Below, one piece after another: positions 34,119 to 42,657 of a DNA stretch of 64,000 nucleotides. How positions within the stretch are numbered: the first letter of the stretch is position 1; the number at the start of each line of letters is the position of its first letter. This stretch comes from Carposina sasakii. Taxonomy: Eukaryota; Arthropoda; Insecta; Lepidoptera; Carposinidae. The stretch spans positions 2,976,001 to 3,040,000 of the forward strand of contig CP053161.1 of assembly GCA_014607495.2 (NCBI GenBank), in the 5' to 3' direction. The position numbers and the translations under genes were made by a program. Under the pieces are notes generated by a model. It did not search any database, had not been told where the DNA came from, and saw only the letters and a list, made by a program, of their open reading frames with translations.

Positions 34119-34361
34119 TGTATGGTCCGTGTCCGTACACGTATTATTAAGATGATAATTGATAAGCTGTTTGATTGATATTAAACCAGTTTATTGTAGA
34201 AGACACACTTTTAGTTGATAAGGTACAATGCTATGCTAAGGACGCATCGATGTCTATCAGAGAACAGTCGAGACCCAACTAACTTATATTACTATAAAAT
34301 ATCGCTGTGTCGCGGTAAACGCTGACACAAGCGGTTTGTACGGTTGCCGATGGCCCGTACA
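34119..34361 (-). repeat. 3' LTR of the BEL/Pao provirus
   Basis: In element orientation begins TGTACGGGCC and ends GGACCATACA. Contains a ttttatag TATA-like site and an AATAAA signal (tttatt at about 34190). One difference from the 5' LTR was seen. The coding frame stops 173 bp before it, and no strong polypurine tract is seen just upstream. Confidence 0.92.
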
Positions 34362-34534
34362 TGCTCCCGGGCGGGAGATGAGAATTATCCTAAATAACAT
34401 TAAAGTAAGTAAGTATAAAGTGCGACAGTGCTATATGAAATGAAGTGATTTAGGTGCTGTACACAAAAACTAAATTAATTGAATTATACATTCAAGACAA
34501 AATATAACAATTCAGCTTAACATGTTTATAGACA

Positions 34535-37500
34535 TTAGACATCTGCTAAAGTCAATTGTTTTAATGCTATAGGCGAAGATCCTTGATCTTTTCGTGCACT
34601 ACACTTAACACTTGGCTGTCGGGTAGCCTTAACACTTTGACCGATTTCACTTGACACATTCACACTACACATTGTTGAATTGTCTACGCTGTGCTGTCGA
34701 ACTGCTGGAACATGCTGTTGCCGTCGTCGCTGGTAGGCGGACATCCAGCCGCGACGGTGCTGCCACCGCCACCCCATGTACAAACACATTGCTAGTACCA
34801 TTGACATCAAAACGTAGCTTATGGCATAATGATGTATATCATGAGGCGAAATGGTGTCATCTGCTGTTTGTAAGTTCTCATTCATTACTTCTATTTTCTT
34901 GTTTAGATTTTTTAATGCTGCGTGAATTTCTTCAGTGTGATTCTCAATATTACTTTGTAAAGGAATCGATATGTTAATTATATGATTGATAGGAGCTATC
35001 TCTGGCAGAGGCAATATATCTGATGCTGTATGTAATATGTTCGAGCGATAGTCATGGGAGTATATTGTGAAGTCTGATCCTTTTACAATACAGCCTTGAT
35101 TCATATGGATCACGCCAGCCTTGCTGAGTAGACGAGGAGTAATTTGATCATCACAAATTATTCTTATATTGCATGTATTACAACAAAAATAGAGATAAGA
35201 AAATGAGTCATGTAGTTTAACCCATTCATTACGACATGCTGACTTAGAAATCTTACATTGATTGTAGTTATCTAGCAAACAAAACTTTTCGGCAGTATTG
35301 AATTGATAAAAGGGCATATGTAATTGGCACATATATATTTCTCCGCTATACACACATGCTTGTAAATCATGTGTAGTTATACTTAAATAGTAATCCTTTT
35401 CTAGGTTTATAGCTAGGTATTCTGATATCGGTATGATGTTAACTTTACTTTGCTCGGCTTGCTGAGGTATTGTTATTATTTTATGCAGTTGGAAAGTATC
35501 TCTACTGAGAAGTGGAAATGATATTTCGAATAAACAGTATCTGTCCGTCATTCTTGCTTTTATTTTTAGTAGATTGTAAATTTTTCTAATATCTTCAGGT
35601 ATTCTACCAATCGGTAAAATCACATCCTTAGATAACTGTCCGGATATAGTATTTAGTTCTTTTATAAGTTGATTGGGTGTTAATAAGTGCATGTTGAATT
35701 GGCCATGATAAATATCAGTAATTGTATCTAGAAGCGTATCTTGCAATCTTTTTAAATTCTGTAGTATATTTGTCGCTGCGATTGTTGATAGAGTAAATTC
35801 TTGTAGAAGTGACATATTTGTTATCTTTTGCTGGATAGTATTGGTGATTATATTCAGGCGATTGATATGTAGATTTATACTTTTATGCTGCTTCTCAATC
35901 ATAGCTTCTGTTCTTTTTAAAACATTGTATTCGGCTTCCACAATGGAAGTTTGGTTCTTCCATAGATTTAATAAATGTTTTTCATTGTGTTTGATAAGAT
36001 CAATGTCTTTTGTATACTTATCTGCAAATCTTTCATCTAAGACCCCAAATAAGCTATTTGCTATATAGCCCACTCCGTTGATCAATCCACGTCTATTTCG
36101 GATGTGCGCTTCAAAATGCTGAGTTAGTAACAGGTGATTATAGTATTCCAGTTCTGTGTAATCGTGACGTAATTGTAATATAATCACTTGGCAATTACTT
36201 TGATCCTGTATACTAGAGCATACATTTTCTAAATAGCTATTGTATTTTTTCAGAGTCGTTATTCCTTCCCAATAAGGATCCATATCATAGTATACTATGA
36301 GTTTCCAGGTTTCTTTTATTAACTGGAGATTTCCAATTGCGTCAAAGTACAGTGATTGATTATTGTTAAATGTTGTGATATTATATGATGCTGCTATTGA
36401 TGAAATTATATTCATAAAGAACATCCATCCTAATGCTAAGGACCAAAACTTAGGAGTTTTAAGTTTTGTTTTCCGAGAATTGCTTTCTTTCTCTTTGTCC
36501 CCTACTATTTGCTCGGAACTCGATTTCAAAGGTAATATTGATATTTTACTGATTGGTCGTTTAATATATCCGTTTTTTGTTTTTAACGTAACTACTCTGG
36601 TTAACCCGTCATTCCCCGGATGTAATTCGGTTATTCGCCCCATGGGCCATTTTCCTGCTGGCAAATTGTCGTGGTGGATGGTAACCAGATCCCCAATTCC
36701 TATGTTTTTGTTTGTTTTCAACCATTTGCTTCTCGATGATAACTGTGTTAAGTATTCTGCTGTCCATCTCTTCCATATGTCTTGGAATAGTTTGCTCGTT
36801 AAATGCCATCTTATTCTGGCATCCGTCTCTGTCTCAATGATCGTCAAGTTAGATCGCCCAGTTAGAAAATGAGCTGGAGTAAGGAAATCCAAGTCTTCTG
36901 TTAGGGCACAAAGAGGCCTTGAATTTAAGCACGCTTCAAGTCTGGCTAATAGGGTAGTATATTCCTCAAAAGTCAGTTTCTGTTCTCCCACCACTCGCTT
37001 CAAATGAAACTTTAAGCTTCTGACTGCTCTTTCCCACAATCCTCCCGCACTGGGCCAAGAGGGTGCGTTGAAATGCCACTCAATGTTGAGATCTGTTATC
37101 TCAACAAAGAAACTGTCATTATAAATTTTTAATAATTGCTGATATTCCTCCTGAATCGTCCGGTTTGCTCCCACGAAGTTTGTCCCGTTGTCGCTGTATA
37201 TGTGACCGGGTGCTCCTCGCCTTGCTGACATTCGACAAAGGGCTGCTAAAAATGCTGAACTGCTAAGGTCTGAGACTATTTCCAGGTGAACAGCTTTCGT
37301 CACCATACAAATGAATACTGCTATATACCCTTTTGTGGTTTTTATACCGCGTCCTGTATTCGCCTTAACATCTACAAAGCCAGTAAAATCGACCCCTGTA
37401 TGATAAAACGGGCTGGCTTGATTGCTCCGGGCTTCCGGCAGGTCTCCCATTAATTGTTGCGATAGTGATGGTTGCTGTTTTCGGCAGGTGATACAATTAC

Positions 37501-42398: not shown

Positions 42399-42411
42399 GC
42401 TCGAAGGACCA
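42399..42411 (-). other. Primer binding site for tRNA-Tyr
   Basis: In element orientation TGGTCCTTCGAGC begins 3 nt after the 5' LTR. It is complementary to the 3' end of insect tRNA-Tyr as I recall that sequence, including CCA. Exact tRNA identity should be checked against the host tRNA set. Confidence 0.75.
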
Positions 42412-42414
42412 AAA

Positions 42415-42657
42415 TGTACGGTCCGTGTCCGTACACGTATTATTAAGATGATAATTGATAAGCTGTTTGATTGATATTAAACCAGTTTATTGTAGAAGAC
42501 ACACTTTTAGTTGATAAGGTACAATGCTATGCTAAGGACGCATCGATGTCTATCAGAGAACAGTCGAGACCCAACTAACTTATATTACTATAAAATATCG
42601 CTGTGTCGCGGTAAACGCTGACACAAGCGGTTTGTACGGTTGCCGATGGCCCGTACA
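42415..42657 (-). repeat. 5' LTR of the BEL/Pao provirus
   Basis: 243 bp, TG...CA ends, identical to the 3' LTR but for one base near the inner end. Carries a ttttatag TATA-like box and AATAAA (42486-42491 in minus orientation). The 362-nt leader between this LTR and the ATG contains a CAG/CTG run (about 42110-42130). Confidence 0.93.

What the first reader, a model, noticed from the sequence alone, without database searches (positions are those of the whole stretch)
34119..42657. Young, near-intact BEL/Pao endogenous retrovirus with gag, pol and envelope in a single 2505-codon frame
Seen: 243-bp LTRs with one difference, exact 5-bp target duplication, primer site, and an uninterrupted frame through protease, RT (YMDD), RNase H, integrase and a C-terminal region with a furin-type site, fusion-peptide-like stretch and transmembrane segment. 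Known: most BEL/Pao elements lack env; a few (roo, Tas, Cer7) carry one. Inference: this is a recently active env-bearing lineage, and having env in frame with pol, not as a separate overlapping frame, is unusual and raises the question of how Env is released or expressed.
Basis: partly seen in the sequence, partly recalled or inferred. Interest (0 to 1): 0.9.

Follow-up and report, generated by a model that had tools for sequence, protein, structure and literature searches.

The report
Moth retrovirus-like element with fused envelope
A young, intact virus-like jumping element in a moth or butterfly genome carries its envelope gene fused to the end of its enzyme gene; the same layout recurs in many related elements of that genome, which makes it a good test case for how such an envelope gets made.

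Summary
A BEL/Pao element lies on the minus strand at 34119-42657: 243-bp LTRs with one difference, target duplication CACGA, a 13-nt primer site for host tRNA-Tyr, and one 2505-codon frame. Its last ~630 codons are a Baculo_F-type envelope with signal-like segment, RNRR/fusion peptide, transmembrane segment and tail. The interpretation needs correcting: env in frame with pol is neither an accident nor new. roo (one ORF, homologous env) and hookworm Atlas virus (one Gag-Pol-Env polyprotein) are published precedents. Among the best 102 of 157 matches in this genome, 63 loci span the pol-env join, 60 without a stop, 17 in frames of at least 2250 codons. Eleven of 11 envless relatives fetched stop right after the integrase tail; three of three gypsy-type loci fetched have env in a separate frame. 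Envelope codons are under purifying selection between copies. On the envelope tree the BEL envelopes of moths and flies group apart from gypsy-type ones. My preferred mechanism is one polyprotein whose internal signal sequence sends Env into the ER; splicing is a serious rival, since acceptor-like sites exist and no RNA was available. New member of a known kind.

The parts
34114..34118 (.). target-site duplication, left copy (CACGA)
34119..34361 (-). 3' LTR (element reads on minus strand), 243 bp
   Evidence: 34 LTR matches in the genome
34535..42052 (-). single open frame, 2505 codons, Gag-Pol-Env
40874..41308 (-). Gag, DUF1759 (residues 249-393)
40511..40648 (-). two CCHC-type knuckles (residues 469-514)
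40223..40249 (-). protease motif LIDQGSQIS (residues 602-610); Pfam Asp_protease weak
38951..39337 (-). reverse transcriptase, YMDD at 39041-39052
38294..38776 (-). Peptidase_A17 (Pao) region, after RT
37121..37633 (-). integrase: H2C2 zinc domain and rve core
36533..36811 (-). DUF5641, C-terminal tail of integrase
36443..36532 (-). variable K/R/N/S-rich linker between pol and env, no Met
36389..36442 (-). internal signal-sequence-like segment SLALGWMFFMNIISSIAA (residues 1871-1888)
   Evidence: cleavage inferred
36089..36388 (-). F2-like subunit, ends at furin-type site RNRR (36089-36100)
34829..36088 (-). F1-like ectodomain starting with fusion-peptide-like GLINGVGYIANSLFG
34763..34828 (-). 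transmembrane segment (residues 2409-2430)
34538..34762 (-). cytoplasmic tail, 75 residues
42399..42411 (-). primer-binding site TGGTCCTTCGAGC for tRNA-Tyr, 3 nt from the LTR
42415..42657 (-). 5' LTR, 243 bp
42658..42662 (.). target-site duplication, right copy (CACGA)

Best explanation
It is a recently inserted, structurally intact BEL/Pao (Belpaoviridae-type) endogenous retrovirus of a lepidopteran, one of many families of a group that carries an F-type (baculovirus F-like) envelope fused in frame to the end of Pol. Most likely mechanism: the full-length RNA is translated into one Gag-Pol-Env polyprotein; when the hydrophobic segment at residues 1871-1888 leaves the ribosome it acts as an internal signal sequence, the downstream part enters the ER and signal peptidase frees Env, as in flavivirus-type polyproteins (recalled analogy). 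Furin then cuts at RNRR, exposing the fusion peptide of a membrane-anchored F1, while the cytosolic Gag-Pol is cut by its own protease. Env is kept by selection, so it is probably used for spread between cells or into the germ line. Shown: anatomy, kept frame, selection on env, grouping of the BEL envelopes. Inferred: translation as a polyprotein, signal-peptidase and furin cleavage, infectivity.
For: Frame kept: of the best 102 of 157 matches to the DUF5641-signal-F2 piece in the own genome, 63 span the join, 60 with no stop; 58 of the 63 are not the window's family; 17 lie in frames of 2250 codons or more. Where the match is split in two, six of nine pairs lie in frames of equal length, three do not. 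Linker length differs between families (29 to 51 residues in 23 junctions parsed of 30 loci), so indels occurred and the frame survived them in these loci. Contrast in the same genome: 11 of 11 envless BEL loci fetched stop 0-10 residues after the DUF5641 match; 3 of 3 gypsy-type loci fetched with upstream flank have an integrase frame that ends before a separate env frame. Signal segment: hydrophobic core (mean at least 1.6) in 37 of 38 parsed junctions of homologues, the other being the window (1.58), with two or more K/R before it in 35 of 38; 19 of 23 in the own genome, the other four being the window's family at 1.58. Selection: pN/pS of env against four other copies 0.08-0.11, of gag-pol 0.22-0.28; variable codons among five copies in F1 ectodomain 16 silent and 8 replacing, P 1e-6 under neutrality, in linker-signal-F2 5 and 2.
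Against: No RNA or protein evidence. The genome search favours loci that match in one frame. Hydropathy alone does not single out the signal segment: integrase and protease pieces of the same frame reach 1.68 and 1.56 against 1.52 for the signal and 1.71 for the TM segment over 19 residues. Each Gag would come with one Env, an odd ratio. Env of gypsy-class insect retroviruses is made from spliced RNA (PMC12992720 passages). Candidate splice donors exist near the 5' end (42093, 42028), and acceptor-like sites recur at shared positions between families, some of them in the signal segment. Linkers are not Met-free everywhere: 14 of 23 in the own genome, 33 of 38 in homologues. The selection counts share the window copy and rest on few changes.
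Confidence: 0.5

Rival explanations
1. Env is made from a spliced subgenomic RNA that joins the 5' leader or the first gag codons to the region before env, as in errantiviruses; the open frame through pol into env is then not needed for Env.
For: Splicing is the rule for insect gypsy-class env (PMC12992720 passages). In the window the two best-scoring donors of the first 2.6 kb by a rough matrix are AAA|GTAAGA at 42093, upstream of the ATG, and CAA|GTGAGA at 42028, after 8 gag codons; acceptors with fair scores lie at 37092, 36897, 36873. On an alignment of ten loci of this genome, 16 positions carry an acceptor-like site in two or more loci, against a mean of 2.9 in 500 shifts; seven of ten have one of 4.8 or more within or next to the signal segment, all in the same phase (two of the ten are near-copies of one family). 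Eight of ten joined gene models looked at link Gag or protease residues to env, and six of the ten start their env part at about window residues 1883-1898.
Against: Homologous codons alone make acceptor-like sites line up, which the shifts do not control for; no position is shared by more than five of ten loci. An acceptor inside the signal segment would cut the signal off unless another exon supplies one. In the gene models the upstream breakpoints scatter, and the env-side start may only mark where similarity begins. Splicing does not explain why pol and env stay in one frame with different linker lengths. The splice matrices were rough and recalled.
Confidence: 0.38
2. Env is started internally at an in-frame Met in or just before the signal segment (in the window the Met of GWMFFMN).
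For: A Met lies in the hydrophobic 14-mer in 32 of 38 homologue junctions; several env-only ORFs in the databases start there.
Against: Met is frequent in hydrophobic segments; the signal would be cut short; most linkers have no Met upstream of it (33 of 38; 14 of 23); ORF callers choose an ATG in any case.
Confidence: 0.07
3. Env is a passive remnant, carried along without use; the frame is open only because the copy is young.
For: The four other copies of the window's family that were fetched are young too (LTR identity 97.9-100%).
Against: Silent changes exceed replacements in env between copies; the frame is kept across families 36-53% alike.
Confidence: 0.03

Closest known systems
roo (Drosophila, BEL group)
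   Same: One ORF; env present and homologous to errantivirus F-type env (PMC5408687, passages). Proteins with DUF5641 and Baculo_F in one chain occur in Drosophila subpalustris, D. palustris, D. takahashii, Teleopsis and Haematobia; on the env tree those dipteran rows that were included group with the moth ones.
   Different: The D. melanogaster roo sequence itself was not compared here. The review (citing Malik 2000, not read) dates roo's env to after the Drosophilidae split, with errantiviruses as possible source; my env trees place the dipteran BEL envelopes with the lepidopteran ones instead, though no Drosophila errantivirus was in the trees.
Atlas virus and kin (hookworm belpaoviruses)
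   Same: Single Gag-Pol-Env polyprotein of 2828 residues without stops, identical LTRs (PMC9094657, passages).
   Different: Env there is a phlebovirus-like class II protein; here Baculo_F-type.
Errantiviruses (gypsy, ZAM, TED; Metaviridae)
   Same: F-type Env with furin site, fusion peptide, TM.
   Different: Env is a separate, spliced ORF (PMC12992720; own-genome loci L057-L059 have it as a separate ORF); pol is gypsy-type, not BEL; LTR ends differ (PMC5408687).
Mosquito BEL/Pao with chuvirus-like glycoprotein
   Same: BEL/Pao elements with a captured envelope (PMC13172572 and PMC9963324, passages).
   Different: Type III fusion protein of another origin.

Membership tests
Belpaoviridae (BEL/Pao) | LTRs 0.2-1.2 kb, whole element 4.2-10 kb (ICTV profile, PMC8742986, whole text) | tested here: met
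   243-bp LTRs, 8539 bp
Belpaoviridae (BEL/Pao) | Pol order PR-RT-RNase H-IN with BEL/Pao-type Pfam domains | tested here: met
   DUF1759, RVT_1, Peptidase_A17, H2C2, rve, DUF5641 in order; RNase H not separately matched, protease weak, rve under its cut-off
Belpaoviridae (BEL/Pao) | RT phylogeny with reference BEL elements | not tested
   reference sequences were not fetched
Belpaoviridae (BEL/Pao) | 18-nt primer site for tRNA-Arg or tRNA-Gly (described in the ICTV profile; a description, not what defines the family) | tested here: not met
   13-nt match to host tRNA-Tyr
Belpaoviridae (BEL/Pao) | polypurine tract of about 10 nt (described, not defining) | tested here: inconclusive
   only GGGAGCA next to the 3' LTR
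single-ORF env-bearing BEL elements (roo-like) | Gag, Pol and F-type Env in one frame | tested here: met
single-ORF env-bearing BEL elements (roo-like) | env groups with dipteran BEL env | tested here: met
   branch 100/99; 2 of the 6 dipteran rows have DUF5641 in the same chain; the pol tree needs two changes of env status
single-ORF env-bearing BEL elements (roo-like) | direct kinship with D. melanogaster roo | not tested
   its sequence was not fetched
Errantivirus | env as a separate ORF | tested here: not met
   contrast loci L057-L059
Errantivirus | gypsy-type Pol and AGT/AnT LTR ends | tested here: not met
   BEL-type domains; TG/CA ends
Baculo_F (F-type fusion proteins) | profile match over most of the protein, furin-type site followed by fusion peptide, TM anchor | tested here: met
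Baculo_F (F-type fusion proteins) | class I fusion fold | not testable with these tools

The most novel reading that the evidence does not exclude
A group of insect BEL retroviruses, in moths and flies, makes its envelope without any subgenomic RNA, as the ER-inserted C-terminal part of a Gag-Pol-Env polyprotein. It took up one F-type envelope once, long ago and not from errantiviruses within Drosophilidae, keeps it under selection at least as strong as that on its polymerase, and is still spreading in this genome.
Probability: 0.3. Interest if true: 0.75.

Novelty: new member of a known kind. Interest (0 to 1): 0.5.

Why it matters
The genome gives a ready experiment: envelope fused to pol (BEL) and envelope in its own frame (gypsy class) side by side, in many young families. 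It makes testable whether a retrovirus can make Env as part of one polyprotein, how the Gag-to-Env ratio is then set, and when insect BEL elements took up their envelope. It also corrects the idea that the single frame is a curiosity of one copy.

Tried and rejected
Single-copy accident: rejected. Env similarity by chance: rejected. Domesticated host env: rejected, LTRs and other copies are present. Errantivirus: rejected. Splice-site scans with rough, recalled matrices: no clear answer. Gag-env joined gene models as evidence for splicing: upstream breakpoints scatter, env-side starts cluster; left open. Tree of integrase-DUF5641 with envless gene models: inconclusive, models may be cut short; repeated with envless loci of the own genome. 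The first env tree lacked the window row by oversight; one search has it. Scan of viral contigs with the env piece: no relative found.

Rows dropped: one search parsed 38 junctions of 75 proteins that carry both parts; one search parsed 23 of 30 loci; one search used the best 102 of 157 matches (of the further rows listed, three reach beyond DUF5641, none spans the join from end to end); one search dropped two dipteran rows for coverage (P0100, P0136), and one kept row (P0123) fills 26% of the columns; codons with gaps or stops were skipped.
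Full report
What is there. The window holds a complete BEL/Pao element on its minus strand. The two 243-bp LTRs differ at one base, end in TG...CA and are flanked by CACGA. One frame of 2505 codons runs from 42052 to 34535. Searched in pieces, it shows DUF1759 (BEL Gag), two zinc knuckles, a protease motif, RT with YMDD, Peptidase_A17, integrase and DUF5641, then two Baculo_F matches. After DUF5641 come a K/R/N/S-rich linker, an 18-residue hydrophobic segment ending in SIAA, an F2-like part, RNRR, a fusion-peptide-like stretch, an F1 ectodomain, a transmembrane segment and a 75-residue tail. 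The ectodomain has 13 cysteines and six N-glycosylation sequons.

Host and age. The nearest proteins whose source names an organism come from moths and butterflies, so the host is taken to be a lepidopteran; this is an inference. One difference in 243 bases, with a recalled rate of about 3e-9 per site and generation, means roughly 0.7 million generations, with a Poisson range of about 0.02 to 4 million. Four other copies of the family have LTR pairs that are 100% (two, one of them over 220 bases), 99.4% over 164 bases, and 97.9% alike, so the family was active recently. Five-base duplications are seen at two of these copies (GTATC, ACTGA) and at two solo LTRs (GTGAG, ACATA); the other two copies have incomplete outer LTR ends. 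Among the five copies examined, only the window copy is open throughout; the others have frame changes, stops or deletions. Some of these may be assembly errors, since two of the broken copies have identical LTRs.

Is the fusion an accident? No. In three of the four other copies the stretch from DUF5641 to the furin site is one frame without stops; the fourth, decayed, has one stop. Genome-wide, 157 matches to that stretch were found. Of the best 102 rows, 63 span it, 60 without a stop; 58 of the 63 belong to other families, 36-53% alike; 17, the window among them, sit in frames of 2250 codons or more, up to 2554. Where the match is split in two, six of nine pairs lie in frames of equal length, so most likely one frame (in one of the six the env part holds a TAG), and three do not. 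A second class matches only DUF5641 and has frames of 1721-1776 codons; 11 of 11 fetched loci of it stop 0-10 residues after the match. Outside this genome, 75 of 181 proteins (the window's own piece included) carry DUF5641 followed by F1 in one chain; many are gene models, which can join pieces wrongly, but some come from unannotated contigs.

Contrast with errantiviruses. The same genome has more than 30 Baculo_F matches in frames of 578-697 codons. In the three such loci fetched with upstream DNA, a gypsy-type integrase frame ends and env starts as its own frame. A search with seven of these envelopes gave 53 proteins, 0 of 53 with DUF5641 in the precomputed domains. On an F1 tree of 55 rows, 32 BEL-type and 23 gypsy-type envelopes are split by one branch (100/99). 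Of the 32, 23 have DUF5641 in the same chain or locus; nine are env-only models whose context is not known, four of them among the six dipteran rows. Of the 23 gypsy-type rows, two had their separate frame checked here; the rest are called so because they carry no DUF5641 or were fetched without upstream DNA. In an earlier tree without the window row, holding the dipteran BEL envelopes together with the moth's errantivirus envelopes was rejected (p-AU 0.016; the outgroup there is a long branch). On the integrase-DUF5641 tree, env status needs two changes: a group of four dipteran and two unnamed rows sits beside three envless loci of this genome. One capture with later losses, two captures from close sources, or exchange between BEL lines all fit. 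This bears on the statement in PMC5408687 (passages) that roo took up env late, with errantiviruses as a possible source, but no Drosophila errantivirus and no D. melanogaster roo were in my trees.

Is Env used? Between the window copy and four others, pN/pS is 0.08-0.11 in env and 0.22-0.28 in gag-pol. Counting each variable codon once among five copies, F1 ectodomain has 16 silent and 8 replacing changes (P 1e-6 under neutrality), linker-signal-F2 5 and 2 (P 0.004), gag 17 and 9, PR-RT-RH 17 and 21, integrase-DUF5641 11 and 8; the last 80 codons have none. Env is therefore kept by selection on the element. Its ratio (0.10-0.13) is like that of gag (0.13) and lower than that of the enzymes (0.21-0.32); the difference was not tested.

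How is Env made? Three routes were weighed. (a) One polyprotein with an internal signal sequence. The kept frame, with linker lengths of 29-51 residues between families, is hard to explain if the join is never translated, though the search favours loci that match in one frame. A hydrophobic core behind basic residues is present in nearly all parsed junctions. Published precedents have one frame too: Atlas virus (PMC9094657, passages) and roo (PMC5408687, passages); neither passage shows how Env is released. (b) A spliced env RNA, as in errantiviruses (PMC12992720, passages). Possible donors exist. Acceptor-like sites line up between families more often than in shifted controls (16 positions against 2.9), and seven of ten loci have one in or next to the signal segment in the same phase; homologous codons may explain this, and no site is shared by more than five of ten loci. 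My splice matrices were rough. (c) Internal initiation; a Met lies within the hydrophobic core in 32 of 38 junctions, but upstream Mets are mostly absent. I favour (a) at about 0.5; (a) and (b) could also act together.

Small departures from the family description. The ICTV profile (PMC8742986, whole text) gives an 18-nt primer site for tRNA-Arg or tRNA-Gly and a purine tract of about 10 nt. Here the primer site is a 13-nt match to tRNA-Tyr, compared with host tRNA genes, and the purine tract is short.

Literature. In the listings I saw no title or abstract start that describes single-frame env-bearing BEL elements of Lepidoptera. PMC6085415 (passages) reports B. mori elements near roo, and PMC6563192 (passages) reports env-bearing LTR elements in a silkmoth. 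PMC3118150, PMC11952523, PMC13172572 and PMC9963324 were seen as passages. The library is open-access only, so this is weak evidence of absence. Verdict: a real, young, well-preserved member of a known kind, with an open and testable question about Env expression and an envelope history that may differ from what is printed.

Noticed in passing
43910-46060 (+): DEAD-box helicase frame (DEAD 5e-46, Helicase_C, SPB4-type C-terminal extension), 716 codons between stops, starting about 1.25 kb from the 5' LTR and pointing away from the element.
   Followed up: no
59850-60814: 35-bp tandem repeat, 20 registers listed, next to a GC-rich stretch.
   Followed up: no
33649-34057, 43328-43565, 54526-54938: A dispersed repeat lies in both flanks of the element and again near 54.5 kb, 86-94% alike.
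   Followed up: partly
51757-52735 (-): Pieces of a decayed retrotransposon endonuclease (Exo_endo_phos and Exo_endo_phos_2 matches).
   Followed up: no
47929-47994 (-): Rfam tRNA match of 40 bits that ARAGORN does not call; perhaps a tRNA-derived SINE.
   Followed up: no
L056 (G000:C8:151300-153500), 72-1943: A stand-alone 623-codon F gene, 627 bits to Baculo_F against at most 184 for the other matches of this genome: a host F homologue or an endogenised baculovirus-type F gene.
   Followed up: partly
L014-L016 and L017-L019: Copies with 100% identical LTR pairs nevertheless carry frame changes: either assembly indels or copies made with help from another element.
   Followed up: no
homologues P0032, P0045, P0055, P0060, P0078, P0085, P0099, P0107: Gene models of moths and butterflies that join Gag or protease pieces to Env, with scattered upstream breakpoints.
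   Followed up: partly
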